NCBI GenBank assembly: GCA_001438605.1
Contig: LIDE01000009.1
Location: forward strand, 1 to 64,000
Direction: 5' to 3'
From: SAR92 bacterium BACL16 MAG-120619-bin48
GTDB lineage: Bacteria; Pseudomonadota; Gammaproteobacteria; Pseudomonadales; Porticoccaceae
DNA length: 64,000 nucleotides
The position numbers and the translations under genes were made by a program. Numbering within the stretch: the stretch's first letter is position 1; every line of letters starts with the position of its first letter. The notes beneath the pieces are model-generated. The model did not search any database. It was not told where the DNA came from and saw nothing but the letters and a program-made list of their open reading frames with translations. This document shows positions 20,966 through 61,634 of the stretch, one piece after another.

Positions 20966-22174
20966 ATGTCAATGAACCCTCAGCTTGAGCGTCTCCACCC
21001 CTACCCCTTTGAACGTCTAAACCAGCTCAAGGCGGGGATAGTCCCACCCAGCCACCTTGCGCCCATTTCACTCTCGATTGGTGAGCCAAAACACCCCTCG
21101 CCCGCGTTTGTAAAACAGGTGCTTGTCGACCATATTGACGCCCTCGCTGTCTACCCAACCACAAAAGGTGGGCAACCATTGCGCGACGCCATTGCCACAT
21201 GGCTGCAAAAGCGCTTCAACTTGCCCTCTGGCAGCATAACGGCTGACCAGCACGTGTTACCGGTAACCGGCACCCGCGAAGCGCTTTTCGCCTTTACCCA
21301 AGCGGTGATCGACCGAGATACCAGCCCCCTGGTTGTCTCGCCCAACCCGTTTTATCAAATCTATGAGGGCGCGGCACTGCTGGCCGGCGCAGATGTGCAC
21401 TACCTCGACTGCACTGACGAGAACCAGTTTATTGCCGACTTAAACACCGTGCCCGAGGGCGTGTGGCAGCGCTGCCAGCTCTTGCACCTCTGCTCACCGG
21501 GTAATCCGACTGGCGCCGTCATGAGTATTGCTCAGCTGCAACAGGCGATTGCGCTGGCGGACAAATATGATTTCTTGATTGCCAGCGACGAATGCTACTC
21601 AGAGATTTATCTCGACGAAGACAACCCACCGCCAGGGTTATTGGACGCCTGCGCCCAGCTTGGCCGTACCGATTATGCCCGCTGTGTTGTGTTTCATAGC
21701 CTCAGTAAGCGTTCAAACTTGCCGGGGCTGCGCTCTGGCTTTGTCGCCGGTGATGCAACACTGCTGCAGCGTTTTTTGCAGTACCGCACCTATCACGGCT
21801 GCGCCATGTCGCTGTCGGTTCAAGCGGCGTCGACCGCCGCGTGGCGCGATGAGCAGCATGTCATCGAAAACCGCCGACTCTACGCCGATAAATTTGCCGC
21901 AGTAACCGATATTTTGCGCCCAGTTTTAAACTTCCCAACGCCTCAGGCAAGCTTCTATCTCTGGGCAGAGACGCCCATAGACGACAGAGACTTTGCCAAA
22001 GGCTTGTTTGCCCAAGAAAATGTCACGCTGTTGCCAGGACAGTATTTGTCGCGAGACTCGGCGCAGGGTAATCCTGGGCAAAACCGTGTTCGCATGGCGT
22101 TAGTTGCCGATATCGACGAATGTATTGACGCAGCGCAACGCATCAAACGCTTCGTGGAAAACTTAGTGAAGTAA
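20966..22174 (+). CDS. dapC: Succinyldiaminopimelate transaminase
   Basis: PLP-dependent aminotransferase of the succinylase route to diaminopimelate and lysine. 402 residues, fold type I; the PLP lysine is in FHSLSKRSNLPGLRSGF and the phosphate/substrate region in SPNPFYQIYEGAALLAG. The glnD-dapC neighbourhood and the nearby dapD support DapC over other aspartate-type transaminases. Two starts are close (20966 and 20972). The stop codon is the first of three TAA codons in a 12-bp tandem repeat. Confidence 0.92.
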   Translation: MSMNPQLERLHPYPFERLNQLKAGIVPPSHLAPISLSIGEPKHPSPAFVKQVLVDHIDALAVYPTTKGGQPLRDAIATWLQKRFNLPSGSITADQHVLPVTGTREALFAFTQAVIDRDTSPLVVSPNPFYQIYEGAALLAGADVHYLDCTDENQFIADLNTVPEGVWQRCQLLHLCSPGNPTGAVMSIAQLQQAIALADKYDFLIASDECYSEIYLDEDNPPPGLLDACAQLGRTDYARCVVFHSLSKRSNLPGLRSGFVAGDATLLQRFLQYRTYHGCAMSLSVQAASTAAWRDEQHVIENRRLYADKFAAVTDILRPVLNFPTPQASFYLWAETPIDDRDFAKGLFAQENVTLLPGQYLSRDSAQGNPGQNRVRMALVADIDECIDAAQRIKRFVENLVK

Positions 22175-22205
22175 CGAGCGCAGTAACAAGTGCAGTAACG
22201 AGGAC
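22170..22205 (+). repeat. 12-bp tandem repeat on the dapC stop codon (3 units)
   Basis: Units AGTAACGAGCGC (22170-22181), AGTAACAAGTGC (22182-22193) and AGTAACGAGGAC (22194-22205). Each carries TAA in the dapC frame (22172, 22184, 22196). The third unit also supplies the GAGGA ribosome site of the next gene, nth. See the matching structures after dapD, nhaC and the SCP2 gene. Confidence 0.85.
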
Positions 22206-22212
22206 ATTACGC

Positions 22213-22866
22213 TTGATCAAACAACAGCGCGCCAACTTTATATTGCAGCGGCTCAATCAGCTCTATCCCGAAACGCCGGTGCCGCTAAACCACCGCAACA
22301 ATTTTGAATTATTGGTTGCCGTGTTGCTCAGCGCCCAGTGCACTGACGAGAGGGTCAATCAAGTCACTCCAGCCCTATTTGCCCACGCCGACAATGCCTT
22401 CGATATGCAGCATGTGCCGCTTGAGACGATATACACCATTGTGCGTCCCTGTGGTCTGGCGCCGCAAAAATCGAAGGCAATTTCAAACTTGTCAAAAATC
22501 TTAGTTGAATCCTATGCCGGCGAAGTGCCTGAAGACATTAGCGCCCTTGAGACCCTGCCCGGCGTTGGCCACAAAACCGCCAGCGTGGTGATGTCCCAAG
22601 GCTTTGGCCAGCCAGCCTTTCCTGTTGATACCCATATTCACCGCTTGGCCCAGCGCTGGGGCCTGACGAAGGGGAAAAATGTGGTGCAGACTGAGCGAGA
22701 TTTAAAGAAAGTCTTTCCGCGAGATCAATGGAACAAGCTGCATCTGCAGATTATCTTTTATGGTCGTGAATATTGCTCGGCGCGGGGCTGCGATGGCCGT
22801 GTCTGTGATATTTGTAGAACCTGCTATCCGAATCGCAAAAAGCCGTTTATCGCTCATAAGCCGTGA
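22213..22866 (+). CDS. nth: Endonuclease III
   Basis: DNA glycosylase/AP lyase for oxidised pyrimidines. 217 residues. The helix-hairpin-helix LPGVGHKTASVV provides the catalytic Lys and FPVDTHIHRLAQRWGL the catalytic Asp. The start is TTG at 22213, 7 bases after GAGGAC, which belongs to the upstream tandem repeat. The iron-sulfur loop reads C-SARG-C-DGRV-C-DI-C-RT-C: five cysteines whose spacing differs from the usual C-x6-C-x2-C-x5-C. Confidence 0.95.
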   Translation: MIKQQRANFILQRLNQLYPETPVPLNHRNNFELLVAVLLSAQCTDERVNQVTPALFAHADNAFDMQHVPLETIYTIVRPCGLAPQKSKAISNLSKILVESYAGEVPEDISALETLPGVGHKTASVVMSQGFGQPAFPVDTHIHRLAQRWGLTKGKNVVQTERDLKKVFPRDQWNKLHLQIIFYGREYCSARGCDGRVCDICRTCYPNRKKPFIAHKP

Positions 22867-23000
22867 TCCGCCAAAGCCCTAATCCCCGGGGCCGGAAGTC
22901 GATTTTTAGCGGGCTTGTAAACCAGCAAGTGCAACGCGACAAACACAGCATTAAACAATCTTAGAAAGAGCGGCATTAATTGGCGGGGTTGTTTTTAACG

Positions 23001-23561
23001 CTACGATTTGCAGATAGTCTTTTCCAAGGCAATTAGCGCCTGCTTGCGCGCCAAACCCCACTTAAAACCGGCCAGTTGACCATCGCCGCGCACCACACGG
23101 TGACAGGGGATGGCGAGTGCGATTTTATTATTTCCACAGGCACTGGCGACTGCTCGCACTGCGCTGGGCTTGCCAATGCCGCGCGCCACATCTGCGTAGG
23201 ACTGCAGACAGCCGTAAGGCACTTCCATCAAATAACTCCAGACAATGCATTGAAAAGGCGTTCCGTGTATATCCAGCGGCAGGCGAAGCTGTTTTGTCTT
23301 GCCTGCCAGAAAGTCATTGATCTCGCTAATCCATAATTCAAAGGTTGGCAGATCCTCCGTTGGCATGGGTTTCCACGTGGCCATGGGATATTCTTTTACC
23401 AACTGTGTAAACAGTTTGTCGTCGCTATCATCAAATTGAAGAAAGCAGATCCCTCGATCAGTTGCGCCAACCATGACGCGGCCCAAACTTGTCGGCGCCG
23501 CAGCGTAGAAAATATCCTCGCAGGCACTCGCTTTGCGTTGAGTGTTTAACGTTGTATTCAT
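23001..23561 (-). CDS. ogt: Methylated-DNA--protein-cysteine methyltransferase
   Basis: Suicide repair of O6-methylguanine. 186 residues; the acceptor cysteine lies in IALAIPCHRVVRGDGQLAGFKWG and the DNA-binding helix region in GTPFQCIVWSYLMEVPYG. Only the Ogt-type catalytic part is present, without the Ada zinc or AraC-like domains. Monocistronic and convergent with nth; the 134 bases between them show no clear terminator. The gene could equally be called a truncated Ada C-terminal domain, but length fits Ogt. Confidence 0.93.
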   Translation of the reverse strand: MNTTLNTQRKASACEDIFYAAAPTSLGRVMVGATDRGICFLQFDDSDDKLFTQLVKEYPMATWKPMPTEDLPTFELWISEINDFLAGKTKQLRLPLDIHGTPFQCIVWSYLMEVPYGCLQSYADVARGIGKPSAVRAVASACGNNKIALAIPCHRVVRGDGQLAGFKWGLARKQALIALEKTICKS

Positions 23562-23785
23562 CGGCTTAATCCATTTTCCAATCAGTACAGAGACCGCACG
23601 CCACCTGAAGCGTGTTTAGCCTGCGGGACGTCTCAAGTAACCCTTCTCTTATCAGGTCTATCCTAGCAGTTATTGTATGCATTGAAATTTGCCGTTGCCA
23701 ATGATCGGAGGTCTCACAGCCTGTTTGTTGCATTCCATTCAATGAGATTAGGCTAAGGTTGGCCATCAATCTACTAAATCAACCG

Positions 23786-23814
23786 TTTTTTCATGGGGGG
23801 GTTTTAGTTATAAT
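23786..23814 (+). promoter_or_regulatory. Putative promoter of the yffB-dapD pair
   Basis: A perfect TATAAT box at 23809-23814 precedes the ArsC/YffB-like gene; the -35 position holds only a T-rich hexamer at 23786-23791. The leader of about 25 bases contains CCACCTT then AAGGGAGG, which can pair and partly hide the ribosome site. The activity is a sequence-based guess. Confidence 0.5.
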
Positions 23815-23843
23815 TCCCACCTTCAAAAAGGGAGGCAAGGTCG

Positions 23844-24188
23844 ATGGTCAGGCTCTACGGCATCAAAAATTGCGACACGATTAAAAAAGCCCGTAAATGG
23901 CTCAGTGACCACCGTGTAGAGTACACATTTTGCGACGTTCGTATCGACGGTATTGACGCCACTGCGATTGAGCATTGGATCGCCCAAGCGGGTTGGGAAA
24001 AAGTCCTTAACCGCAGCGGAACCACGTGGCGCAAGTTACCTGAAGATGTTCGAGAGACCACCCAAGCGAACAACGTCGTCGCCCTGCTCCTAGACCACCC
24101 AGCGATGATTAAACGTCCCGTGCTCGACGTCAACGGGACAATCCATATCGGCTTCAAGCCAGATCTCTATGAGACAATTTTTCATTAA
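23844..24188 (+). CDS. ArsC/Spx family thioredoxin-fold protein (YffB-like)
   Basis: Small 114-residue protein of the arsenate reductase-like family. The conserved start LYGIKNCDTIKKARKWL gives a single redox cysteine near residue 10; RPVLDVNG and GFKPDLYE are the family C-terminal motifs. YffB homologues are usually found beside dap genes and act, if at all, as glutathione-dependent thiol reductases; the true substrate is unknown. Seventeen bases separate it from dapD, so both share the TATAAT promoter candidate. Confidence 0.9.
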   Translation: MVRLYGIKNCDTIKKARKWLSDHRVEYTFCDVRIDGIDATAIEHWIAQAGWEKVLNRSGTTWRKLPEDVRETTQANNVVALLLDHPAMIKRPVLDVNGTIHIGFKPDLYETIFH

Positions 24189-24205
24189 ACGGAAAGAGTA
24201 GATTT

Positions 24206-25234
24206 ATGAGTCAGCTATACAGTTTTGCCATCGGTGTTGGCAGCAAAAACAGTCGCGGGGAATGGTTAGAAGTCTTTTATCCAGCGCCACTCTTGAACCC
24301 AGATGCAGCGCTGCAAGATATTATTCGTGTCAGTTTAGGACTTACCGCAGGTGAGATCGAACCCAGCACCGAACAGTTAGCTGCCCTCTGCTCGGCGCTG
24401 TCTCACAATGGCTTTGGCCAGTTCGCGCGCTCGATAGAGCAGCTGGCCACCTCGAGCCGCCCGGTCGTTGCCGTGGCTCTGGCCACTAACAGTGCGCCCA
24501 CCACAGTGCCGCAAGCCTATTTAAAGCTGCATCTTCTCAGCCATCGCCTCGTCAAGCCCCACGGCACAGATTTAACCGGTATCTTTGGTGTATTGAAAAA
24601 TGTTGCCTGGACTAGCGTCGGCGCAATCGATATCGACGAACTACCGAACCGCCTGTTGCAGGCGCGTTTAGCGGGCCAGCCACTCAGCGTTAACTGCGTG
24701 GATAAATTCCCTAAAATGGTCGACTACGTCGTCCCTAGCGGTATCCGTATTGCCGATACGTCAAGAGTGCGCCTGGGCGCTTATGTTGGCGAAGGCACCA
24801 CCGTGATGCATGAAGGCTTTATTAACTTTAATGCTGGAACCGAAGGCCCCAATATGATTGAAGGTCGCGTATCCGCTGGTGTTTTCTGTGGTGCCGGATC
24901 GGATATCGGCGGCGGCGCATCTATTATGGGTACCCTCTCAGGCGGCGGGAGCTTGGTTATTTCTGTCGGTGAAAAGTGTCTGCTGGGTGCAAATGCTGGA
25001 CTAGGCATTCCTCTCGGTGACCGCTGCACAGTTGAAGCTGGACTTTACATCACCGCGGGCACTGTGGTGACCATGCTCGATGCAAATAAAAAGGCCAGCG
25101 GTACTATGAAAGCAAGGGATCTAGCCGGTAAGAGTGATTTGTTGTTTAGACGTAATTCGGTCTCTGGGGCCGTTGAGTGTCTGACTAACAAGAGCGCCGT
25201 GGAGCTGAACAGCGAATTGCATACGGCCAACTAA
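24206..25234 (+). CDS. dapD: 2,3,4,5-tetrahydropyridine-2,6-dicarboxylate N-succinyltransferase
   Basis: Adds succinyl from succinyl-CoA to tetrahydrodipicolinate on the way to diaminopimelate and lysine. 342 residues, the long Pseudomonas-type form (FAIGVGSKNSRGEWLEVFYPAPLL). The left-handed beta-helix spans about residues 180-300 (RVRLGAYVGEGTTVMHEGFINFNAGT, GGGASIMGTLSGGG). Its substrate route continues with DapC encoded 2 kb upstream. The stop TAA at 25232 is the first of eight consecutive in-frame stops. Confidence 0.96.
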   Translation: MSQLYSFAIGVGSKNSRGEWLEVFYPAPLLNPDAALQDIIRVSLGLTAGEIEPSTEQLAALCSALSHNGFGQFARSIEQLATSSRPVVAVALATNSAPTTVPQAYLKLHLLSHRLVKPHGTDLTGIFGVLKNVAWTSVGAIDIDELPNRLLQARLAGQPLSVNCVDKFPKMVDYVVPSGIRIADTSRVRLGAYVGEGTTVMHEGFINFNAGTEGPNMIEGRVSAGVFCGAGSDIGGGASIMGTLSGGGSLVISVGEKCLLGANAGLGIPLGDRCTVEAGLYITAGTVVTMLDANKKASGTMKARDLAGKSDLLFRRNSVSGAVECLTNKSAVELNSELHTAN

Positions 25235-25348
25235 ACTTGCGCCAGCTAAGGCCGCTCCAGCTAGGTCCTTACAAGCTAGGTCCTTACAAGCTAGGTCCTT
25301 ACAAGCTAAGTCCACACAAGTTAAGTCCATACAAGCTAAACCCACACC
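25229..25348 (+). repeat. 15-bp tandem repeat on the dapD stop codon (8 units)
   Basis: Eight 15-bp units, the three central ones identical (AGCTAGGTCCTTACA at 25259, 25274, 25289) and the flanking ones degenerate. Because 15 is a multiple of three, each unit puts one stop in the dapD frame: TAA at 25232 and 25247, TAG at 25262, 25277 and 25292, TAA at 25307, 25322 and 25337. The first unit includes the last dapD codons. Confidence 0.93.
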
Positions 25349-25350
25349 AA

Positions 25351-25387
25351 CAGTGCCATATCTCTGATTAAAAGAGCCATGGCACTG
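25351..25387. terminator. Hairpin between convergent dapD and fabG4-type gene
   Basis: CAGTGCCAT (25351-25359) pairs with ATGGCACTG (25379-25387), and CTCT (25362-25365) with AGAG (25373-25376) inside the loop. No T-run follows on either strand, so it may be a transcript-end stabiliser or weak terminator. Confidence 0.4.
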
Positions 25388-25420
25388 GATTGGCGTGACC
25401 CACCGTCTCGCTGAAAGCCA

Positions 25421-26758: not shown

Positions 26759-26836
26759 GTTTTTATGTCCTTTCAACGAGGTCGTCATAGCGCTTGTCAG
26801 CAGCGGCTGTAAAGTGTAACCGGAGACGTCACAACA

Positions 26837-28311: not shown

Positions 28312-28416
28312 GAGCGACATTAACGCTCGAGGAGATCGGCGCAGTTCCCACGGTATAACGTGGGCCCGGTTCCTCCCCGAAGGGGTCTTACGATTGGATA
28401 TGTAAGACCCCTTTTT
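28312..28416 (+). ncRNA. Structured intergenic element, candidate small RNA or long 3' UTR
   Basis: Four helices in 105 bases between convergent genes: GAGCG/CGCTC (28312-28328); a basal helix GAGGA (28329-28333) with TCCTC (28371-28375) and CGG with CCG inside; a hairpin CCCACG/CGTGGG (28347-28364); and the terminator stem 28381-28412. CCCC (28375-28378) can also pair with GGGG (28382-28385), which would compete with the terminator stem. No known family was recognised and the upstream promoter is weak (ATGACA 28283, GATACA 28306), so it may simply be the thiolase mRNA end. Confidence 0.35.
28381..28416 (+). terminator. Rho-independent terminator after the FadI-type thiolase
   Basis: AGGGGTCTTAC (28381-28391) pairs perfectly with GTAAGACCCCT (28402-28412) around a 10-base loop, followed by TTTTT. 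The T-run is on the plus strand only, so it ends plus-strand transcription. Confidence 0.9.
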
Positions 28417-28457: not shown

Positions 28458-28505
28458 GCCAGTCGCTCAAGACACTAAAACTTAAGGCCACTAAAACTAA
28501 AGACC
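28458..28505 (-). repeat. 16-bp tandem repeat on the nhaC stop codon
   Basis: On the minus strand GGTCTTTAGTTTTAGT (28505-28490) is followed by GGCCTTAAGTTTTAGT (28489-28474) and a decayed third unit starting GTCTTGAG. Read in the nhaC frame this yields four stops within 11 codons: TAG (28499), TAG (28493), TAA (28484) and TGA (28469). Confidence 0.75.
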
Positions 28506-29843
28506 AATAACAACAAACAGCACAGCGGCCATCGCACCCGCGATCAGGGCATAGGGCAACTGGCTGAGCGCATGTTCCATAACGCCTGTGCCGGAACTCT
28601 GGGCCACCAAGACCGTTGAGTCACTGTAAAAACAGGCGTGGCTGCCAAAAGAACTTGCCGACAACAACGCACCAATCATCAACGGAATAGACACATCCAT
28701 GCTGACCGCTAAGGGAATAAAGATCGGAATGGCAATGGCAAAAATGCCCCATGACGAACCTGTCGCAAAGGCCAGCAGCGACATCACCACAAAGGTCATA
28801 AGCGGCAGCATCAAGGGCGACATAAGTGGGCGCAGCGATTCGATCACGTACTGAGGCAGGCCTAACTGATCATTTACGGCTTTAAACATAAAGGCACAAA
28901 TTACCGTTCCTAGGGGCGGCAACATTATCTTAAAGCCGTTCATCACCGCTTCGAGGGCCCCTTTTCCGGAAATTAATTTCTGCGCCACCAGGAAGGGAAT
29001 GGTTACTGCGAGAGTCACGATAATGCCCTTCAGCAGGTCTATATCGAAGTAGATTGAGAAGCCGATGAGAGAAATGAGTGGCAACAAGAAAGTCCAGAGA
29101 TTCGCATTGCCCGCTGGTTCATCTGCATGATCTTCAAAATCAACCACATCGGTAAGCGACAGCTGTCCTTTCTGAGCCATCGCTTCGGCGTGCTTCATCG
29201 GCCCGAGCAGAGGAAATCTTCCGGTGGCAACCAAGGGAACCAAAATCACCGCAATCCACGCATAAAACATGTAGGGAATACCGGAAATGTAGAGGCTCAA
29301 CCCACCGCCACTGCTCGCTGCGCCGGCATCTTCAAGCAGCGCAGCAAAATACACCGCCCAGGTTGAAATCGGCACAATCACACAGGTGGGGGCCGCGGTT
29401 GAATCCACCACATAGGACAACATGGAGCGCGACACTTTAAATTTGTCAGTCACTTTTTTCATCGATGAGCCGATGGCAATGGCATTGAGATAGTCATCAA
29501 TAAAAATCGCCATTCCCAAGAACCATGTGACCAGCAGGGATTTATTGCGCGTGTTGGCTTTTCGCGCCATGTTCTGAGCGAAAGCTGTTGCAGCCCCCGT
29601 TTGAATAAGCAGCATGATCAAACCGCCCATCAAGCCACAGACCATGATCACCCAACCAATAGTTTCATCTGCCATAATCTCAAGCGAAAGATCAGCAACA
29701 CCGCCGATAACGGCCGTCGGATCAATAAACAACAGACCCGACACCACACCCGCCAGCAGTGAGAAAATAGGACGGTGGGTAATCACCGCTAAGGCCACGA
29801 CAATCAACGTTGGTATTAGGCTTAAAGCACCGTAGGTTTCCAC
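28497..29843 (-). CDS. Na+/H+ antiporter, NhaC family
   Basis: Inner-membrane transporter with about eleven hydrophobic segments. 448 residues. Family hallmarks are FIDDYLNAIAIGSSMKKVTDKF near residue 115, VDSTAAPTCVIVPISTWAVY and ATGSSWGIFAIAIPIF. Such proteins exchange sodium for protons, or sometimes malate/lactate or amino acids, which fits a marine sodium-rich setting. GTG start at 29843 after GGGAG. Monocistronic, with its stop codon embedded in a tandem repeat. Confidence 0.88.
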   Translation of the reverse strand: METYGALSLIPTLIVVALAVITHRPIFSLLAGVVSGLLFIDPTAVIGGVADLSLEIMADETIGWVIMVCGLMGGLIMLLIQTGAATAFAQNMARKANTRNKSLLVTWFLGMAIFIDDYLNAIAIGSSMKKVTDKFKVSRSMLSYVVDSTAAPTCVIVPISTWAVYFAALLEDAGAASSGGGLSLYISGIPYMFYAWIAVILVPLVATGRFPLLGPMKHAEAMAQKGQLSLTDVVDFEDHADEPAGNANLWTFLLPLISLIGFSIYFDIDLLKGIIVTLAVTIPFLVAQKLISGKGALEAVMNGFKIMLPPLGTVICAFMFKAVNDQLGLPQYVIESLRPLMSPLMLPLMTFVVMSLLAFATGSSWGIFAIAIPIFIPLAVSMDVSIPLMIGALLSASSFGSHACFYSDSTVLVAQSSGTGVMEHALSQLPYALIAGAMAAVLFVVIGL

Positions 29844-38925: not shown

Positions 38926-39030
38926 CTTTAGTTTTACGCCTTATACAGAGCGCCAACGGTGTCCTGCTCAAACAGTGGCGGCACAGCGCAAAACTGTGGC
39001 CTCAGTTACGGGAGTGCCATAAAAGTGCCA

Positions 39031-39064
39031 TAAAAAAACCCCATTCAACAGTCTGAATGGGGTT
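39031..39064 (-). terminator. Rho-independent terminator of the peptidase gene
   Basis: AACCCCATTCA (39037-39047) and TGAATGGGGTT (39054-39064) form an 11-bp perfect stem with a 6-base loop. Read on the minus strand it runs into seven further T residues (39038-39032 complement). It follows the peptidase stop by about 70 bases. Confidence 0.9.
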
Positions 39065-39135: not shown

Positions 39136-40929
39136 TTACCAACCGCAGGCGCGGTCTTTGTTCTGATCCTTTAGCCAGCTATTAAGCGGCGCAAAGTAGT
39201 CAATAATCGCGCTGCCGTCCATTTGGCGCTGCCCTGTTAACGCTTCCATTGCATCTGGCCAAGGCTTGCTCTGACCCATCGCTAGCATCGCGCCCAGTTT
39301 GGCACCGGCGACTTTGTTGTTGTAGATGGAGCATTCATTGAGCGGGCCTTCATAGCCTGCCGCGGCGCAGAGTGCTTTGTGAAATTGAAACTGCATAATA
39401 AACGACAAGAAGTAGCGGGTATAAGGCGTGTTGCCCGCAACATGGTACTTGGCGCCTGCATCAAAATCGGCCTCACTGCGAGCCACTGGGGCACGCAAAC
39501 CTTGGTACTCTTCGCGCAACTTCCACCAGCTGGCATTGTAATCTTCCGGCGCAATTTCACCGGAGAAGACCTTCCAGCGCCACTCGTCAATCATCTTACT
39601 GAACGGCAGGAAGGCAATCTTGCTCAGCGCCAGTTTCATCTGCTTGTTGATGGTGGCTTCGTAGCTGTCGGTAACTGCTCCGATTAATCCTTTCTGCTGC
39701 AGATAGCTCGGTGTCATAGAGAGCTGAATGGTGTCGCCAATGGCTTCATGGAAGCCATCATGGGCACCGCCTTTGAAATACGAAGGCTGATCTTTGTACA
39801 TTTGGTAGTAGTAGATGTGCCCGAGTTCGTGATGCAGGGTGCCGAACTGCTCTTCGTTAATTTCGACGCACTGCTTGATGCGCGGATCGCTGCCACCGCC
39901 CATATCCCACGCGCTGGCATGACAAACCACATTGCGATCGCGGGGCTTTTTAATCATTGAGTTTTGGTAAAAACTCTCAGGCAATGACGGCAGTCCCAGC
40001 GAGGTGAAGAATCCCTCTGCGGTTTTGGTCATCTTCATCTCATCATAGCCTTGATCCACTAAGGCTTTGGTGACATCTAACTGCCCAACCCCTTTGTAGG
40101 GCTCCATAATGTCGTAAATATTGTCCCAGGTCTGAGACCACATATTGCCCAGCAGATGCGCTGGAATCGGCTGATCTAACGGCACGCGATCGGCACCATA
40201 GGTCTCGCTGAGTTTAGCCCGCACATGGCAGTGTAGCTCTTCGTAGAACGGCTTGACCTGCTCCCACAGACGACGCGCTTCCACAACAAACTCTTCGCTC
40301 GGCATGTCGTAACCGCCGGTCCAGAGCTCAGCTAAGTTTTTAACGCCAAACTCCTTGGCGCCCTCATTGGCAATTTCGACAAAACGCTGGTAGTCCTTGC
40401 GATAAGGTGGCGACACTTCACGCCAGCCCTTCCACACATCGAGCAGCTCATCGTAATCGCGGGACTGCGCGAGAACGGCTTCAAGCTCCTGCAGTTCACG
40501 GCATACGCCCGCCTCATTACAGTATTTTCCGGCGCCGTATTGGCCTTCCATATTGGTGAGGATTTCCGACAATTCCGTGCGTAGCGCAGCATCGTCTGGT
40601 GCTGGGGCCGAGGACCCACGCAACATTAACTCGATGGCGCGAGCGGTACGCTCGTCCATCTCTGCACCCTTATACTGTTTTGCCTGCTTGACCACGGCGC
40701 TCTCAAAGGCAAGACCGCGCTCGCCGGCCTTCGCTGCCAGGACGGCCGTATCCTGAGTAATGTAAGTGCTGCGCACCCAGGCTGCGGCATAACTCTCTTT
40801 CGCCAGCTCATTGCCCTCGCGCTCAATACGCGAGACGAAATCGGCGGGCGATTCAGCAGGCGCCTTGGCCTGATCACAGGCGCCCAGTAATAGTGCGCCC
40901 ATTAAGGGCACGATAAATTTATGTTTCAT
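39136..40929 (-). CDS. M2 family (ACE-like) peptidyl-dipeptidase lipoprotein
   Basis: Zinc dipeptidyl carboxypeptidase that releases C-terminal dipeptides. From ATG 40929 it has 597 residues; a TTG three bases upstream only adds one Met. Lipobox LLGAC puts the lipid on Cys18 with Asp at +2. Zinc ligands His367 and His371 (HHELGH) and Glu395 (HEAIGD) lie 24 residues apart, exactly as in ACE. The start overlaps the stop of the peptide transporter by one base (TGATG), so dipeptide release and uptake are co-expressed. Confidence 0.93.
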   Translation of the reverse strand: MKHKFIVPLMGALLLGACDQAKAPAESPADFVSRIEREGNELAKESYAAAWVRSTYITQDTAVLAAKAGERGLAFESAVVKQAKQYKGAEMDERTARAIELMLRGSSAPAPDDAALRTELSEILTNMEGQYGAGKYCNEAGVCRELQELEAVLAQSRDYDELLDVWKGWREVSPPYRKDYQRFVEIANEGAKEFGVKNLAELWTGGYDMPSEEFVVEARRLWEQVKPFYEELHCHVRAKLSETYGADRVPLDQPIPAHLLGNMWSQTWDNIYDIMEPYKGVGQLDVTKALVDQGYDEMKMTKTAEGFFTSLGLPSLPESFYQNSMIKKPRDRNVVCHASAWDMGGGSDPRIKQCVEINEEQFGTLHHELGHIYYYQMYKDQPSYFKGGAHDGFHEAIGDTIQLSMTPSYLQQKGLIGAVTDSYEATINKQMKLALSKIAFLPFSKMIDEWRWKVFSGEIAPEDYNASWWKLREEYQGLRAPVARSEADFDAGAKYHVAGNTPYTRYFLSFIMQFQFHKALCAAAGYEGPLNECSIYNNKVAGAKLGAMLAMGQSKPWPDAMEALTGQRQMDGSAIIDYFAPLNSWLKDQNKDRACGW

Positions 40930-55178: not shown

Positions 55179-56003
55179 CTAGCGGTGGTCAGCCGCCCAA
55201 TAGGGCTTACGCTTTTCAACAAAGGCGGCGACACCCTCGCGCCCTTCGTCACTCAGCATGCAGTGGGCGAAGCCTTGAGACGCAAAATCCAAAGCCTCTG
55301 GCCGCGGTCGGCGTAGGGTTTCGAAAAGAATACTTTTGGTCACGGCATTCGCCCCTGGCGCACAGGCGGCAACTTGGCCTAAAACGGTCTGGCATTGCGC
55401 CTCAAGCTCTTTAATAGTCTCAGCCACAGCGTGTGCGATACCCAGCGCAACAGCCTCAGTGCCACTAAAACGGGCGCCTGTGAGCATTAAACGCCGCGCT
55501 TGGGTAAGACCGACACGCTCGGTGACAAAAGGGGCGATTTGTGCCGGCGGAATACCGAGACTGGTCTCGCTGAGACGAAAGCGCGCATCGGCCATCACGA
55601 GGGTGATGTCGGCAACACAGGCCAACCCTAGACCGCCGCCAATGGCAGCGCCCTCAACGAGAATAATCACCACCTGCGGCTGTTCATTGAGCTTAATCAG
55701 CAGATCGCCAAAGCTGCGGTTGCTTTGCGCCACTTCTTCAGCGCTGATCACCTGCATGCCTGATTTGAAGCCTTTGATATCGCCACCGGCGCAAAACACG
55801 CCGCCTTTGCCGCGCAGCACAATCGCCCGCAGACTCCGGTCGTTATGCACGGCGTCGAGCACTGCGGAAAGCTCGTCGCTCATCTCTGCGGATAATGCAT
55901 TCTTGGCCTCGGGGCGGTTTAGCCAGATGGTCAACACGGCGCCCTGCCGCTCTAGCAGCAGTGCTTTGGTATCGGGTAATACTGTTTTTGCTAAGTCTGT
56001 CAT
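55179..56003 (-). CDS. Enoyl-CoA hydratase family (AtuE/LiuC-like glutaconyl-CoA hydratase)
   Basis: Crotonase-fold hydratase of 274 residues. Oxyanion-hole segments are LRGKGGVFCAGGDIKGFKSG and EGAAIGGGLGLACVADITL; RLSETSLGIPPAQIAPFVTERVG carries a catalytic-site Glu. Placed between the carboxylase alpha and beta genes, as in atu and liu operons, it should hydrate the glutaconyl-CoA product of the carboxylase. 22-27 base gaps on both sides show co-transcription. Confidence 0.9.
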   Translation of the reverse strand: MTDLAKTVLPDTKALLLERQGAVLTIWLNRPEAKNALSAEMSDELSAVLDAVHNDRSLRAIVLRGKGGVFCAGGDIKGFKSGMQVISAEEVAQSNRSFGDLLIKLNEQPQVVIILVEGAAIGGGLGLACVADITLVMADARFRLSETSLGIPPAQIAPFVTERVGLTQARRLMLTGARFSGTEAVALGIAHAVAETIKELEAQCQTVLGQVAACAPGANAVTKSILFETLRRPRPEALDFASQGFAHCMLSDEGREGVAAFVEKRKPYWAADHR

Positions 56004-56025
56004 GGTTTATCTCACTAGAAAGCGG

Positions 56026-57648
56026 TTAGAGGCGTGCCACGCCAAAGCTATTTGGCCGCACCACGCGATGGCGCCCTTCGCGGACGGTCTCAAGCAGCAT
56101 ACCGAGCGTCTTGCGCAAATTGCGCGGATCAATCATGCCGTCGTCCATCATGTGACCCGAGGTATAAAAAGCATCAGACTGAGAGTCGAAAATATGCGCC
56201 AATACCTGCTCCTGCTGGGCGAGCATTTCCTCATCCGGCGCCACACCCATAGCCGCAGCCTTGCCGCGGGCTACCATCGACATGGTTTTAGCGGCCTGCT
56301 CTCCACCCATCACACCCATTCGCGCATTGGGAAAGGTGTAGAGGAAATCTGGATTGTAGCCGCGACCACACATGCCGTAGTTACCCGCACCGAAACTGGC
56401 GCCCGTCATCACAGTGATGCGCGGCACGTCGATATTGCGCACGGCTTGAATCATTTTCGAGCCGTGTTTGATCATGCCCGCCTGCTCAGATTTCGTGCCA
56501 ACGATATAGCCGGTGGTGTTTTGGAAAAACAGGGCTGGAATATTGGCCTGATCGAGTAGCTGCAAAAACTGCGTGGCTTTGTTGGCACCCTGAGGGTCAA
56601 TCGGACCATTGTTGCCAATAATACCAACCGATTGACCAAAGATTTCTGCCTTCAAACAGACAGTAGAGACTCCGAAGCGGGGTTTAAAGTCGAGGAAATC
56701 CGAGCCATCCACTACACGCGCCACGAGCTCACGCATGTCGTAAGGCGTGCGATAGTCTGTTGGAATCACCCCCGCCAGTTCGTCTGGGTCATAAATTGGC
56801 TCGAGAAAATCACGTTTTGGCGGTAATGGGCAGTTGTCATTCCACTGCAATCGATTGATCAGCTCACGGCATATCTGAATACCGTGGCCATCGTTTTCCG
56901 CGAGATATTCGGCAAGACCCGAGACTGTGGCATGCATCTCCGCCCCGCCCAACTCTTCCTCTGTGGCTATTTCGCCGGTTGCCGCTCGCAGCAGAGGTGG
57001 GCCCGCCAAGAATGCGCGCCCTGTGCCTTTTATGGCAATCACATAGTCGCTTAAGCCCGGCATATAGGCACCGCCCGCGGTGGAAGAGCCATGCAAAATA
57101 GAAATCACCGGTATTCCCGCTTTACTCAGCTTCGCCAGAGAGCCAAAAAGTGCCCCACCGCTGCTAAATCCTTCGACGGTATAATTCATCAGGTCACCGC
57201 CAGCGCTCTCAACCAGATGCACAAAGGGCAACTTCTGTTCCAGTGATATCTCTTCTGCGCGACTGATCCGATAGCCACCCGCGGTGGTTAACGATCCCGC
57301 CAAAATGCCACTGTCGTCAACCACGACGGTGCAGCGCACGCCCGAAATAAAGCCAATACCGGCAATAACCGTTGACCCGGGAATGGATTTGTCAGGATTT
57401 TTTGCATCAACCAAATACCCAGCAAGGTTGCCGATTTCAAGAAACGGCATGCCGGGATCGAGCAGGCGCGCCAAGCGCTCACGAGGCGTTAGCTGACCCC
57501 GTTCATCAAACCTTGGCTTGCGCTTTTCAGAGATCTCGCGGCCTCTCGCGTTAAGCATATTAAGCTTATCGACAAGGGCGAGCATCTCCGCACGTTGACG
57601 CAGAAACGTCTCTGAGTTGGTGTTTATCTTTGAGGCAAATACTGCCAT
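56026..57648 (-). CDS. Acyl-CoA carboxylase carboxyltransferase beta subunit (AtuC/LiuB type)
   Basis: Transfers carboxyl from biotin to the gamma carbon of an unsaturated branched acyl-CoA. 540 residues in two crotonase-like halves: RLLDPGMPFLEIGNLAGYL and HGSSTAGGAYMPGLSDYVI in the first, PALFFQNTTGYIVGTKSEQ and MTGASFGAGNYGMCGRGYNPDF in the second. Either methylcrotonyl-CoA or geranyl-CoA could be the substrate; family and length do not decide, but AtuA directly upstream points to geranyl-CoA. Confidence 0.92.
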   Translation of the reverse strand: MAVFASKINTNSETFLRQRAEMLALVDKLNMLNARGREISEKRKPRFDERGQLTPRERLARLLDPGMPFLEIGNLAGYLVDAKNPDKSIPGSTVIAGIGFISGVRCTVVVDDSGILAGSLTTAGGYRISRAEEISLEQKLPFVHLVESAGGDLMNYTVEGFSSGGALFGSLAKLSKAGIPVISILHGSSTAGGAYMPGLSDYVIAIKGTGRAFLAGPPLLRAATGEIATEEELGGAEMHATVSGLAEYLAENDGHGIQICRELINRLQWNDNCPLPPKRDFLEPIYDPDELAGVIPTDYRTPYDMRELVARVVDGSDFLDFKPRFGVSTVCLKAEIFGQSVGIIGNNGPIDPQGANKATQFLQLLDQANIPALFFQNTTGYIVGTKSEQAGMIKHGSKMIQAVRNIDVPRITVMTGASFGAGNYGMCGRGYNPDFLYTFPNARMGVMGGEQAAKTMSMVARGKAAAMGVAPDEEMLAQQEQVLAHIFDSQSDAFYTSGHMMDDGMIDPRNLRKTLGMLLETVREGRHRVVRPNSFGVARL

Positions 57649-57730
57649 GTCGTCTCTCCACTCGGGGCTAATGCGTTGTTAGTCAATTCTCCGCGCAGGG
57701 CACGGGTGTTAGTTCAAGGGATCGCCTAGG

Positions 57731-59545
57731 TCATAACTGCCGAAGTATCTCGGCACTGACTGGAATCTGTGCGTCGAGCAGCAACTGGCCAAATCCTTTT
57801 CCTTGGGCATCGTTGCGAATACTGGCCATGCCACCGCCGCCCAGTGCCTCGTGCAGTAAAAAATTGATGCCATTGATGCCAGGCATCAAAAAGCGCTGCA
57901 CATAACAGCTGCTGTTGGTCGCCGCGGCATCGGGCAGGAAGTGCGCAAAGCGCAAAGCCACCGCCTGCTCGGTCAGGGCTGCATAAATGTAAGGAAGGTA
58001 TTCAGGCTTGCGAGCAATAATGCCAATATTCGACTTGTCGCCCTTATCACCGCTGCGCGCCCAAGCCAACTTGACTAAAGGCACCGGTGTCAGGACGTCC
58101 CCATCGGTGATAGACGGCGGCACCGGCCGATCGATTGACCGCGAACTATGAGATATGCCGCACGGATCGGCACAGTCAATAAAAACGCCCTCAAGTTCAA
58201 CCTGAATGGCCAGCGCGCCTTTGGGTAAGGCGAAGGAAAATAGCCGCACAATGGGAGAGGGTTTCGGGCGTCCCCCAGCAAAACCTGAAAGGCCCGGTGG
58301 CGTTGCCAAGCCAAGCCCCGTCATTTCTTTTAATAAAATGCCCACTCCGGCAGCGTCGGGATGTTTTACTGCAATCTTCATCGCTACTTCGCGAGATTCA
58401 CGCTGCTGCGCGGCAGCGCCATACTGGCTTTCACAGCCAATCAACTCAACGCTGGTCTCGCTGAAGTCCGCCAACCCAAACTGTTTAAACGTGCGCCGGG
58501 AGGCTGCAAAAACTGCATCGGCAAACTTCCGCGCCTTTTTATCTGCATCTATACCGTACAGCGTCATAGTATGCCCGCCGCGCCACTGATCTGCGTAGGT
58601 GGTGCAGACTTTGTAACTATCCGGTGCAGGTGATCCAGTTGCGCCGCGAACAGCGACTTTGTTCTCACCCACCTGTTCAATCTGCACCTGAGAAAAGTCG
58701 CAGACTACATCGGGTAACAGATAGTCTTGAGGATCGCCGATTTCATAAACCATCTGCTCCGCCACTGTCCCCACGGAGACAAGACCGCCCGTCCCCTCTG
58801 GCTTTGAGCAGACAAATCTGCCATCTCGGCTGATCTCAGCAATCGGGTAGCCAATGCTCTCGAGGTTATTCACCAACGTCCAATCGGTAAAATTGCCGCC
58901 GGTAGCCTGAGGGCCACATTCCAAAATATGTCCCGCGAGAGAGCCCATGGCCAGACAGTCGAGATCGTCACGCCCCCAACCAAAGGCGTGGATACAGGCA
59001 CCTAGAGTCACAGCACTGTCGACACAGCGGCCCGTCACAACAATATCGGCGCCTGCCGTTAGCGCAGCAGCGACGGGAAATGCACCAAGATAGGCGTTAA
59101 CACTGGCAATTTTTTCGGTCGCAGGAAAGGCGTCGTCGCTAAACATTTCGCGATAGCCCTGGGCGGCAAGTGCATCGCGCTGGTCGAACAAGTCGTCGCC
59201 CAGCACACACGCGACGTTGAGATCGAGTCCAAGATTGGCGATAACCTCGCGCAGAGCATTCGCACAGGCCTGCGGATTAACACCGCCGGCATTGGAGACA
59301 ATCTTCACCCCTTGGCGCGCAATTTCACGTAAATTGGGCTTCATGGCCGCTGTCACAAAGTCCAGTGCATAGCCCGCATCGGGACTCTTAGCGCGGGCGC
59401 GGGCCATAATCGACATGGTTATTTCAGCGAGATAGTCGTAGACAATAACGTCTAAGCTGCCGTCTTTGAGCAGTTGCGCGGTGGCATGCTGTGCATCACC
59501 CCAAAACCCACTGGCACCGCCGATACGAATTGTTTTATCCGACAT
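57731..59545 (-). CDS. AtuA-family protein (acyclic terpene utilization, DUF1446)
   Basis: 604 residues. The N-terminal part (TIRIGGASGFWGDAQHATAQLLKDG, GADIVVTGRCVDSAVTLGAC) is DUF1446; the C-terminal part (WARSGDKGDKSNIGIIARKPEY) is a second conserved domain that is part of the long AtuA form. AtuA is required for citronellol/geraniol growth in Pseudomonas but its reaction is not established. First gene of the carboxylase operon, with an operator-like inverted repeat 70 bases upstream. The symbol is left empty because orthology to Pseudomonas atuA is not proven. Confidence 0.87.
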   Translation of the reverse strand: MSDKTIRIGGASGFWGDAQHATAQLLKDGSLDVIVYDYLAEITMSIMARARAKSPDAGYALDFVTAAMKPNLREIARQGVKIVSNAGGVNPQACANALREVIANLGLDLNVACVLGDDLFDQRDALAAQGYREMFSDDAFPATEKIASVNAYLGAFPVAAALTAGADIVVTGRCVDSAVTLGACIHAFGWGRDDLDCLAMGSLAGHILECGPQATGGNFTDWTLVNNLESIGYPIAEISRDGRFVCSKPEGTGGLVSVGTVAEQMVYEIGDPQDYLLPDVVCDFSQVQIEQVGENKVAVRGATGSPAPDSYKVCTTYADQWRGGHTMTLYGIDADKKARKFADAVFAASRRTFKQFGLADFSETSVELIGCESQYGAAAQQRESREVAMKIAVKHPDAAGVGILLKEMTGLGLATPPGLSGFAGGRPKPSPIVRLFSFALPKGALAIQVELEGVFIDCADPCGISHSSRSIDRPVPPSITDGDVLTPVPLVKLAWARSGDKGDKSNIGIIARKPEYLPYIYAALTEQAVALRFAHFLPDAAATNSSCYVQRFLMPGINGINFLLHEALGGGGMASIRNDAQGKGFGQLLLDAQIPVSAEILRQL

Positions 59546-59613
59546 CTAACCCTCCCCCTAACCGCAAACACAGGGCACAAAACATGCCCTTTACGCGGAG
59601 ATAGTACTGGGTT

Positions 59614-59635
59614 ATTCCCAGCCGCTCTTGGGAAT
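59614..59635. promoter_or_regulatory. Inverted repeat upstream of the atuA-type operon
   Basis: ATTCCCA (59614-59620) and TGGGAAT (59629-59635) are perfect inverted copies 8 bases apart, 69 bases before the atuA-type start. In Pseudomonas the atu operon is repressed by the TetR-type AtuR at inverted repeats, so this is a candidate site of similar design; no such regulator gene is present in the window. Confidence 0.45.
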
Positions 59636-59684
59636 GGATGCCATCAATCGCAGCGGAGATGCCAAATAGCACCCGTCAGACAAA

Positions 59685-60989
59685 TTACGCAGCAACTTCC
59701 GATGCCTGCTCGCTAACGCGCCGCTGTAAGTAATAGGAGGCGACAAAAAATGCCGGAGCCGTGAAAATACCAAAGAAATCGCCCACCAGCAGTGACTTGG
59801 TCAGAGGCTCCGCCACCTGCGCCGCAAACAACAGGTCACTGATAAAACCAATCATCAATGCGCCCAAACCGAGCCCAAACAGATTGCAGGCAACTAACAA
59901 CAAACCCGTCATTAATCCTCGCAGGCGCACAGGGGTAATATCCTGAACGGTCGAAAAAGCCGGCCCATAGAACGAGCTCACGCTGAACAGCGCTGTCGCC
60001 AACCCAATATAAAAGAACGGCGAACTAGGGTCTGCAAAGCGATAACCAATGGTCAAGGGTGCAATAACCACCATCATTATGGCCAAAAACCGAATGCGCC
60101 CGCCGGGCCAGCGCGCTTGATACCAATCACTGAGAATACCGCCCAAAAACGTGCCTGCGGTGCCGCAGACAATATAAATAAGCCCGTACAGCGTCGCCAT
60201 TTCGCCGGGCGCAAAGCCGCGCTCGCGCTCCATCCAAACCATTACAAAGTTGCCAGCGCCTATCGGAATATGCAGCAAAATCGCGCCGATCATCGTCCAC
60301 GCCAGCGCCGGGTTCGCGCGAATGACAGCCCATAGGTCGCGAACCGTATTGCGCAGTCCAACAGGGGCAATGGGTGGCGCTGCTGGCGCAAGCGAAGGCG
60401 GCTCCATAGCACCGCGGACAGGGTCCCGCATCAGCAGCAATCCAACAGCCAAGACAACCCCCAAACCGCCCATCAGATAAAAACAGTTGCGCCAGCCAAT
60501 CATCGGCCCAAGTATACCGGCGACAATAAAACTTCCCCCCGCCCCTAACGGCACCCCAAGATAGTAAAGCCCGCTGGCTGTACCGCGCTGCGACTGCGGG
60601 AAAATATCTGAAATAATCGACATTGACGCAGGCGTCATAGCCGACTCACCGACACCAATAAATAACCTCGACACGCCGATCTGAAGGAAATTTTTCGCCG
60701 CCCCAGACACTGCCGTCAGCACACTCCATAAAATAAGCCCCGCAGCAATAAGCCGCGGACGGTGGACACGATCGGCCAATGCGCCCATAAACAGACCCAT
60801 AATCGCGTAGAAGAATACAAACACCAGCCCCGTCAACAGACCGAACTGCGCATCAGTAAGCTGCAAATCCTCAATAATTCGCGGGCCAAAGCTGGCGATA
60901 AGATTGCGATCCACCATATTGAGGATATTTAACAACATTAAAAAGACGAGAATCCCCTTGGCTCTCGGTGCGGCTTTAATCGTACTCAT
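59685..60989 (-). CDS. MFS transporter, spinster-like
   Basis: 434 residues, 12 hydrophobic segments. NMVDRNLIASFGPRIIEDLQLTDAQFGLLTG and the motif A loop GALADRVHRPRLIAAG are typical of spinster-type and aromatic/lipid-linked MFS carriers of proteobacterial degradation clusters. Codirectional with the atu-type operon, 139 bases upstream of atuA, so import of a terpenoid or carboxylate substrate is plausible. The actual substrate cannot be read from the sequence. Confidence 0.88.
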   Translation of the reverse strand: MSTIKAAPRAKGILVFLMLLNILNMVDRNLIASFGPRIIEDLQLTDAQFGLLTGLVFVFFYAIMGLFMGALADRVHRPRLIAAGLILWSVLTAVSGAAKNFLQIGVSRLFIGVGESAMTPASMSIISDIFPQSQRGTASGLYYLGVPLGAGGSFIVAGILGPMIGWRNCFYLMGGLGVVLAVGLLLMRDPVRGAMEPPSLAPAAPPIAPVGLRNTVRDLWAVIRANPALAWTMIGAILLHIPIGAGNFVMVWMERERGFAPGEMATLYGLIYIVCGTAGTFLGGILSDWYQARWPGGRIRFLAIMMVVIAPLTIGYRFADPSSPFFYIGLATALFSVSSFYGPAFSTVQDITPVRLRGLMTGLLLVACNLFGLGLGALMIGFISDLLFAAQVAEPLTKSLLVGDFFGIFTAPAFFVASYYLQRRVSEQASEVAA

Positions 60990-61166
60990 GAATAGACGTC
61001 ACTTTTTGTTGTTATAGAGAATTGCCCCACTGTATAGAGGCTCAGCGCAAATGTCAGCCCCGCTGTGCCAGCCACGGTTAGGCCTAGCCGCTTTTTCAGT
61101 GCCTCGCACTGGTGCGACTAAATACGCTTCCCCGTGCGATTAAAATATTATGGCAGTGTTTATGTC

Positions 61167-61195
61167 TTGATTTTCTGAGCAGACATTTCTACAGT
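61167..61195 (+). promoter_or_regulatory. Putative promoter of the SCP2 gene
   Basis: TTGATT (61167-61172) and TACAGT (61190-61195) with a 17-base spacer. Transcription would start near 61202, just before the inverted repeat at 61214-61232. Confidence 0.5.
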
Positions 61196-61213
61196 AACAG
61201 TAAGCGGTCTCAA

Positions 61214-61232
61214 GCCTAGGCATGACCTAGGC
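61214..61232. promoter_or_regulatory. Inverted repeat in the SCP2 leader
   Basis: GCCTAGG (61214-61220) and CCTAGGC (61226-61232) are perfect inverted copies with a 5-base gap. They lie between the predicted transcription start and the ribosome site GAGG of the SCP2 gene. Could be a repressor operator or an mRNA hairpin. Confidence 0.5.
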
Positions 61233-61262
61233 ACCATAAAAATTCAAAACGAGGTAGATGCT

Positions 61263-61562
61263 ATGTCATTGGATGCAGTAACAGCAGGCTTAAGAGAAAA
61301 AGTTGGGGAAGATTGCGGATTGGGCGCCGTGCTCAAATTCGATTTCGGCACCGATGGAATATTAACCTTAGATGCTTCACAGGTGCCCAACGTTGTCAGC
61401 AACGATGATATCCCTGCGAAATGTACTGTCATTATCAGCATGGACAACTTTATGCTCATGGCCGACGGCAAGCTTGATGGCACCTCAGCCTTTATGTCTG
61501 GCAAGCTCAAAATTCAAGGCGATATGGGTATGGCGATGAAGTTAGGCCCGCTGTTGGCGTAA
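61263..61562 (+). CDS. SCP2 sterol-binding domain protein
   Basis: Stand-alone SCP2 protein of 99 residues, a hydrophobic-tunnel carrier for acyl-CoA, fatty acids or sterols in the cytoplasm. Characteristic segments are GLGAVLKFDFGTDGILTLDAS, DNFMLMADGKLDGTSAFMSGKLKIQGDMGMAMKL. GAGGTAGATGCT precedes the ATG. In a region full of acyl-CoA dehydrogenases it probably shuttles lipid ligands. Monocistronic, with tandem stop-bearing repeats and a strong terminator after it. Confidence 0.93.
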   Translation: MSLDAVTAGLREKVGEDCGLGAVLKFDFGTDGILTLDASQVPNVVSNDDIPAKCTVIISMDNFMLMADGKLDGTSAFMSGKLKIQGDMGMAMKLGPLLA

Positions 61563-61634
61563 CATTCTAGCGTAAAATTCTAGCGCAAGAGTTTAGCTCA
61601 AGATTTTGGTCTAAGATTTTGCGCTAAGGTTGTA
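61557..61634 (+). repeat. 13-bp tandem repeat on the SCP2 stop codon (6 units)
   Basis: Six 13-bp units beginning GCGTAACATTCTA (61557), GCGTAAAATTCTA (61570), GCGCAAGAGTTTA (61583), GCTCAAGATTTTG (61596), GTCTAAGATTTTG (61609) and CGCTAAGGTTGTA (61622). The first contains the stop TAA at 61560. As 13 is not a multiple of three, successive stops close all frames: frame 0 at 61560 and 61581, +1 at 61573, 61594 and 61612, +2 at 61568 and 61625. Confidence 0.85.

What the first reader, a model, noticed from the sequence alone, without database searches (positions are those of the whole stretch)
22170..61634. Recurring class of stop-seeded tandem repeats at 3' ends
Four genes (dapC, dapD, nhaC, SCP2) carry arrays with different unit lengths (12, 15, 16, 13) and unrelated sequences, all containing the true stop codon. 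Independent sequences in the same position suggest a mechanism or selection acting on 3' ends, rather than spread of one repeat family. I know of no named element with this definition. Three of the four lie between convergent genes, where read-through could matter.
Basis: partly seen in the sequence, partly recalled or inferred. Interest (0 to 1): 0.7.

Follow-up and report, generated by a model that had tools for sequence, protein, structure and literature searches.

The report
Repeat arrays between converging genes
In this marine SAR92-clade bacterium, short stretches of non-coding DNA have repeatedly been copied head-to-tail, above all in the gaps between genes that point toward each other; some arrays take in a stop codon because copying across it leaves the protein unchanged, and nothing found here shows that the stop codon starts or needs them.

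Summary
The four arrays are real, rare in shuffled sequence, unrelated to each other, and placed as described; only the dapD array includes its stop by loose register. Among 975 called genes, 20 arrays span a stop and none a start (TRF: 22 and 0). But inside convergent gaps, arrays begin no more often at the stop than downstream of it (2.66 versus 3.10 per 1000 positions), so the stop is not a seed. The stronger signal is gap type: 24 of 94 convergent gaps carry an array, against 32 of 461 co-directional and 18 of 123 divergent. Units centre on 12-16 bp; stop-spanning periods are not enriched in multiples of three; hairpins persist beside arrays. Samples of five other genomes of the genus hold 5 stop-spanning arrays in 821 genes; yet four relatives carry their own stop-spanning duplications at dapD, probably from three events. 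Best reading: lineage-variable birth of locally templated minisatellite-like arrays, kept where they do no harm, stop overlap being an edge effect. Whether convergent gaps are mutational hot spots is open. Closest known case: Borg tandem repeats.

The parts
22170..22202 (+). 12-bp tandem array spanning the dapC stop (22172-22174); three in-register TAA; co-directional gap, ends 10 nt before the next ORF (22213)
25232..25347 (+). 15-bp tandem array after dapD: strict part 25259-25339; degenerate leading units reach the stop 25232-25234; eight in-register TAA or TAG triplets; convergent gap of 186 bp
25351..25387 (+). hairpin between dapD and the convergent SDR-family gene, outside the array (MFE -20.2, z -4.9; no clear T run)
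28469..28510 (-). 16-bp tandem array spanning the nhaC stop (28497-28499); convergent gap
28380..28413 (+). hairpin ending in a T run in the nhaC/thiolase gap, outside the array (MFE -22.1, z -2.9)
61557..61628 (+). 13-bp tandem array spanning the SCP2 stop (61560-61562), units drifting along the array; convergent gap
61645..61682 (+). terminator-type hairpin ending in a T run, downstream of and separate from the SCP2 array (MFE -25.9, z -5.5); five of eight relatives show by eye a similar hairpin closer to the stop
39013..39035 (.). 11-bp two-copy array about 100 nt beyond the stop of the ORF at 39136-40929: an example not touching a stop

Best explanation
These are minisatellite-like arrays born on the spot by short tandem duplication of local DNA (units mostly 12-16 bp), then extended and eroded by point mutation. 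They persist where an insertion breaks nothing. A duplication that spans a stop always leaves the first copy, with its stop, attached to the gene, so the protein is unchanged; one spanning a start or inside a gene usually does harm. Stop-spanning arrays are thus the gene-side edge of a population of intergenic arrays that is densest between convergent genes, where no promoter or ribosome-binding site is at risk. The birth rate differs between lineages and is high in this species. Shown: unrelated units that include local gene-end sequence; recurrence; absence at starts in the sample; no density peak at the stop in convergent gaps; convergent-gap excess; fewer arrays in samples of five relatives. 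Inferred: duplication by slippage, a high birth rate (not slow loss), and relaxed constraint as the main cause of the distribution.
For: Units are unrelated, so no mobile family (13 of 4278 pairs share a 9-mer). Of 169 arrays in 1.083 Mb, 20 span a stop and 0 a start (TRF 22 and 0). Convergent-gap density shows no peak at the stop. Periods are multiples of three in 62 of 75 coding arrays but in 9/20 stop-spanning, 8/22 convergent and 5/22 divergent ones, as expected if frame is filtered inside genes. Shuffled convergent gaps give about 0.3 arrays against 22 observed there besides the stop-spanning ones. At dapD, relatives L240, L243, L258 and L039 carry stop-spanning duplications (periods 14, 14, 13, 20); L240 and L243 share period and register and may be one event, so these are probably three events. 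20 fetched ends of nhaC (4), SCP2 (8) and dapC (8) in relatives show no array over the stop. The SCP2 array lies between the stop and a terminator-type hairpin of which five of eight relatives show a similar one by eye.
Against: Constraint alone predicts that the first 60 nt after a stop in long co-directional gaps should be as rich in arrays as convergent gaps; it is poorer (10 of 147 stops in co-directional gaps of 120 nt or more, versus 20 of 128 in convergent gaps of 60 nt or more; p = 0.02), although arrays themselves lengthen gaps, an array in a short convergent gap can count from both stops, and convergent gaps of 250 nt or more gave 0 of 14. Co-directional gaps hint at an excess at the stop itself (p = 0.06; 0.023 one-sided with the narrower zone). 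In co-directional gaps 13 of 23 arrays have periods that are multiples of three, more than I expected; some may lie in uncalled coding DNA. Extra in-frame stops are commoner in stop-spanning arrays (16 of 20) than after genes at large (444 of 972 within 33 nt; p = 0.002), which tandem copying of a stop also produces. Start-spanning arrays do exist in relatives (L036/L037; one by TRF in G004). No repair loss was found to explain the high density: MutL, ExoI, ExoVII and RecJ families are present.
Confidence: 0.6

Rival explanations
1. Convergent transcription itself causes the duplications: head-on RNA polymerases or trapped supercoils in convergent gaps produce nicks or stalled ends whose repair copies about 12-16 bp, so convergent gaps are hot spots of array birth and not just tolerant places.
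For: Convergent gaps exceed both other types: 24/94 versus 32/461 (p = 1e-6) and 18/123 (p = 0.056); with TRF and only strong flanking genes 16/73 versus 25/360 (p = 0.0003) and 12/99 (p = 0.10). The 3' zone of co-directional genes is not equally rich. The match rate in convergent gaps peaks at lags 12-15.
Against: Samples of five other genomes of the genus show no clear convergent bias (3/61 versus 17/448 gaps, p = 0.72), nor does array-rich G018 with my detector (2/19 convergent, 8/67 co-directional, 3/19 divergent; TRF 4/19, 8/67, 3/19), though a transcription mechanism should be general; their counts are small. The excess over divergent gaps is not significant per gap. No expression data.
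Confidence: 0.2
2. The arrays are selected as 3'-end parts: spacers, transcript insulators or Rho-type termination regions between convergent genes.
For: Concentration in convergent gaps; the SCP2 array region folds better than most shuffles (z -2.6).
Against: Among convergent gaps of 60-400 nt, terminator-like hairpins are as frequent with arrays (11 of 19) as without (21 of 41); the dapD array has no structure beyond shuffles (z -0.5); stop-spanning arrays are not C-rich over G on the coding strand (C 153, G 170); 27 relatives with a measured dapD gap have -4 to 107 bp, and most of them no array.
Confidence: 0.1
3. Selection for backup stop codons keeps arrays at stops.
For: 16 of 20 stop-spanning arrays hold a further in-frame stop; in those of genes with score 25 or more, 22 of 26 downstream copies keep a stop triplet.
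Against: Periods are not enriched for multiples of three (9/20, p = 0.19); stop columns are not significantly better conserved in the first copy pair (p = 0.25; over all copy pairs 2/54 against 41/298 downstream and 8/141 on the coding side, untested and confounded by copy order); no stop-specific density in convergent gaps. A survey of eubacteria reports no compelling evidence for selection of additional stops (PMC6764699, abstract and outline seen).
Confidence: 0.05
4. Artefact of assembly, gene calling or chance.
For: The genome is in 111 contigs; genes were called by my own script, so some short ORFs may be false (several stop-spanning arrays sit at ORFs under 110 codons).
Against: Copies within many arrays differ from each other; shuffles rarely give such scores; two detectors agree; restricting to strong flanking genes keeps the convergent bias.
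Confidence: 0.03

Closest known systems
Tandem repeats of archaeal Borg elements (PMC9879509; passages and section 2.1.3 read)
   Same: Head-to-tail units unique to each locus, inferred there to arise from local sequence; in ORFs periods divisible by three, in intergenic DNA mostly not; [quoted passage not shown]
   Different: Borg repeats are perfect, strongly A-enriched (48.4% of units) and sit in extrachromosomal elements; here copies are often degenerate, the arrays are chromosomal, A is 29.6% in non-coding arrays against 27.4% in non-coding DNA (33.6% on the coding strand of stop-spanning arrays), and convergent gaps are favoured.
Bacterial minisatellites / VNTR loci (recalled; xanthomonad typing papers seen in the listing only)
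   Same: Short units in head-to-tail arrays.
   Different: Copy-number variation among strains could not be tested here; the concentration in convergent gaps is the added feature.
REP/BIME palindromic repeats (PMC3733652 seen in the listing; placement at 3' ends recalled)
   Same: Found outside genes, at 3' ends.
   Different: REPs are dispersed copies of palindromic families; these units are mutually unrelated.
Mycobacterial MIRU elements (recalled, no call)
   Same: Repeats that can overlap stop codons.
   Different: MIRUs are a related sequence family of larger units; here no shared family was found.
Tandem (additional) stop codons (PMC6764699 abstract and outline; PMC1088959 in the listing)
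   Same: Extra in-frame stops after the true one.
   Different: Here they can come as a by-product of copying a 9-18 bp stretch; no significant frame preference.

Membership tests
Minisatellite-like tandem repeat arrays | Adjacent head-to-tail copies of one unit beyond chance | tested here: met
Minisatellite-like tandem repeat arrays | Copy number varies between strains | not testable with these tools
   No second genome of the species was met: among 50 genomes of the genus searched the best other DNA match in the dapD region was 83%; the ends fetched from relatives lack the same arrays
Borg-type tandem repeats | Perfect copies | tested here: not met
   Copies differ in the four window arrays and many others
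Borg-type tandem repeats | Units unique to each locus, drawn from local sequence | tested here: met
   13 of 4278 pairs share a 9-mer; stop-spanning units include gene-end sequence
Borg-type tandem repeats | Strong A enrichment | tested here: not met
   A 29.6% in non-coding arrays, 27.4% in non-coding DNA; 33.6% on the coding strand of stop-spanning arrays
REP/BIME or other dispersed repeat family | Shared sequence among copies at different loci | tested here: not met
   a 131-base query over the dapD array has one match in the genome
   Convergent gaps 2.66 versus 3.10 per 1000 positions, p = 0.74; co-directional gaps 1.08 versus 0.51, p = 0.06; narrower zone p = 1.0 and 0.023
   20 versus 0 in 975 genes; TRF 22 versus 0; starts were called by script and are less certain than stops
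Known RNA family | Match to an Rfam model at gathering score | tested here: not met
   0 matches in window 20000-63000

The most novel reading that the evidence does not exclude
Convergent gene pairs are birth places of minisatellites in this lineage: collision of converging transcription (or the supercoils trapped between such genes) triggers templated duplication of about 12-16 bp, so that the DNA between convergent genes is partly built by serial short duplications, some starting inside the gene end.
Probability: 0.2. Interest if true: 0.7.

Novelty: new variant of a known kind. Interest (0 to 1): 0.38.

Why it matters
If the convergent-gap bias is mutational, it would tie head-on transcription to the birth of repeat DNA in bacteria and help explain where new intergenic sequence comes from in compact genomes. 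If it is only tolerance, it is still a natural map of where short duplications do no harm, and a warning that extra stop codons and stop-overlapping repeats need no selective explanation.

Tried and rejected
One repeat family spreading: rejected, units unrelated. Backup-stop selection: not supported. Array as terminator: hairpins coexist with arrays. Rho-type C-rich region: no excess of C over G in stop-spanning arrays. Known RNA: no Rfam match at gathering score in window 20000-63000. Loss of repair genes as cause: MutL_C, Exonuc_X-T_C, Exonuc_VII_L and RecJ_OB matches present in 8 of 8 genomes searched, G000 among them; other repair genes were not searched. Clustering of several arrays in one convergent gap: 5 gaps with two or more, 5.1 expected, so no clustering.

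Dropped before counts: arrays of simple 1-5 bp periods and periods outside 8-25; gaps under 20 nt in gap statistics; gaps over 400 nt in the terminator and lag tests (90 of the 94 convergent gaps kept); 7 arrays at stretch ends; three of 20 stop-spanning arrays by the 15-nt zone (kept); genes with score under 25; identical dapD ends. In one search the period line headed co mixes convergent, co-directional and coding arrays; one search gives them apart. In one search the reading frame of some relatives was one base off; one search replaces it. The genome sample is contig beginnings and runs of stretches, not a random draw. While checking this report I withdrew a claim of four independent dapD events among relatives (now probably three).

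Literature: eight searches; two searches returned 0 papers; the others were capped lists (15 of 1449, 15 of 25, 15 of 49, 20 of 1293, 10 of 47, 3 of 4) seen as titles and abstract beginnings, in which I saw none on stop-spanning or convergent-gap arrays in SAR92 or bacteria. This does not show that none exists.
Full report
Source and genes. The window lies in a 2.53 Mb genome in 111 contigs. The nearest dapD relatives in named records are SAR92-clade or Porticoccaceae bacteria, among them HTCC2207, MOLA455 and H231.

The four arrays. All are present. Unit by unit, dapC reads as three 12-bp copies each starting with TAA; dapD as eight 15-bp units each starting with TAA or TAG, the first two degenerate; nhaC as about 2.7 copies of 16 bp; SCP2 as five to six 13-bp copies that drift along the array. 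Shuffles of each region reached the observed score in 1, 0, 1 and 0 of 2000 trials for dapC, dapD, nhaC and SCP2.

Genome-wide test. Genes were called with a script trained on the sample. Arrays were found with a match-run detector, periods 8-25, and independently with TRF. In 1,082,860 bases with 975 called genes the detector gave 169 arrays: 20 spanning a stop, 0 a start, 75 coding, 22 in convergent, 23 in co-directional and 22 in divergent gaps, 7 at stretch ends. TRF gave 22 stop-spanning, 0 start-spanning, 57 coding and 60 other non-coding arrays. Shuffled non-coding DNA (mean of three shuffles) gave 0.3, 4.0 and 0.0 arrays for convergent, co-directional and divergent gaps. So there is an excess over chance and over starts; start positions are less certain than stops.

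Is the stop special? In convergent gaps 10 arrays begin within 20 nt before the stop (3760 positions), and 47 over 0-180 nt after it (15172 positions), p = 0.74; in co-directional gaps 10 in 9220 against 19 in 37137, p = 0.06. A 15-nt zone, which loses three stop-spanning arrays, gives 8 in 2820 (p = 1.0) and 9 in 6915 (one-sided p = 0.023); with only genes of 100 aa or more and score 30 or more the co-directional figure is 6 in 6105 against 16 in 31738 (sums of its rows). An array in a convergent gap is counted from both stops. The stop is therefore covered much as any other position of a convergent gap is, with at most a modest excess in co-directional gaps. Periods are multiples of three in 9 of 20 stop-spanning (p = 0.19), 8 of 22 convergent, 13 of 23 co-directional, 5 of 22 divergent and 62 of 75 coding arrays; the co-directional figure is higher than I expected and may reflect uncalled coding DNA.

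Gap type. For gaps of at least 20 nt, 24 of 94 convergent, 32 of 461 co-directional and 18 of 123 divergent gaps carry an array (convergent versus co-directional p = 1e-6, versus divergent p = 0.056), or 2.73, 0.59 and 0.69 arrays per kb. With TRF the densities are 2.46, 0.62 and 0.41 per kb; with strong flanking genes only, 16 of 73, 25 of 360 and 12 of 99 gaps (p = 0.0003 and 0.10). Array sequence makes up 9.8% of convergent-gap DNA (1096 of 11135 bases). Among convergent gaps of 120-249 nt, 13 of 22 carry an array, partly because arrays lengthen gaps.

Other genomes. Samples of five other genomes of the genus, 945,162 bases and 821 genes in all, had 5 stop-spanning arrays (20/975 versus 5/821, p = 0.014) and arrays in 3 of 61 convergent gaps (24/94 versus 3/61, p = 0.0009). 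G017 and G018, of the same order, had 0 stop-spanning arrays in 314 genes with my detector; TRF gave 2 in G018. G018 is rich in intergenic arrays, with arrays in 2 of 19 convergent, 8 of 67 co-directional and 3 of 19 divergent gaps (TRF 4, 8 and 3). In 61 dapD loci of other gammaproteobacteria there were 2 stop-spanning arrays in 485 genes; in 19 loci of the nearest relatives 2 stop-spanning and 2 start-spanning arrays in 142 genes, the latter two being the same site in L036 and L037. So start-spanning arrays are rare but not impossible; TRF also found one in G004.

Orthologous ends. Among 35 distinct dapD ends from relatives, four carry clear stop-spanning duplications (L240, L243, L258, L039; periods 14, 14, 13, 20) and one a weak one (L244). 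L240 and L243 share period and register, so they may be one event; the periods and registers suggest three events besides the window's own array. Of 27 relatives with a measured gap, five have 10 bp or less. For the other three genes, 20 ends from relatives were fetched; none has an array over its stop, although for dapC the protein match ends 1-8 codons before the stop that was used.

Function. Hairpins ending in T runs lie beside the SCP2 and nhaC arrays, and a hairpin without a clear T run beside the dapD array. In the sample, terminator-like hairpins occur in 11 of 19 convergent gaps of 60-400 nt with arrays and in 21 of 41 without. The dapD array itself has no structure beyond shuffles (z -0.5), while the SCP2 array region folds better than most shuffles (z -2.6; 3 of 200 as good). 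Stop columns show 2 mismatches in 42 against 16 in 139 elsewhere in the first copy pair (p = 0.25). Extra in-frame stops are frequent in arrays (16 of 20 against 444 of 972 in the background, p = 0.002), which copying a stop would give by itself.

Mechanism. The data fit locally templated short tandem duplication with later decay, filtered by where it does harm. The size range is narrow: of 55 non-coding arrays with score 12 or more, 40 have units of 12-16 bp, and in convergent gaps the match rate peaks at lags 12-15; the detector under-reports two-copy arrays of units below 9 bp, so only the fall above 16 bp and the lag peak should be relied on. Constraint does not fully explain the convergent excess (10 of 147 versus 20 of 128 stops with an array within 60 nt, p = 0.02). 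The cause of the high density in this species is unknown; four repair families checked are present.

Comparison. [quoted passage not shown] Those are perfect and strongly A-rich; these are often degenerate and only slightly richer in A than their surroundings. A survey of eubacteria found no compelling evidence for selection of additional stops (PMC6764699, abstract and outline seen). I saw no earlier description in the listings, most of which were capped.

Noticed in passing
window 22200-22215: The last degenerate 12-bp unit after dapC contains GAGG 9 nt before the TTG start of the next ORF (22213), so the array may supply that gene's ribosome-binding site; by eye, relatives have ATG at the matching place.
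   Followed up: no
window 61557-61628: By eye the two halves of the SCP2 array are partly inverted copies of each other (GCGTAAAATTCT against AAGATTTTGCGC), so the array can fold into a long hairpin (z -2.6).
   Followed up: partly
L036 and L037, 2917-2956: A 20-bp tandem duplication spanning a called start codon, the rare counterpart of stop-spanning arrays.
   Followed up: no
L165-L174 (genome G018): Intergenic arrays are about as dense here as in the window's genome (0.67 and 0.49 per kb of non-coding DNA), without a convergent bias by my detector; some are 6-7 bp repeats seen at double period.
   Followed up: partly
L074:2684-2861: Two degenerate arrays with a 23-bp unit near dapD in a gammaproteobacterial record.
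   Followed up: no
dapD/SDR gap in relatives: By eye, some relatives carry a hairpin flanked by runs of A and T in this gap, others only about 5 bp and no room for one, so the layout of this convergent gap differs within the genus.
   Followed up: no
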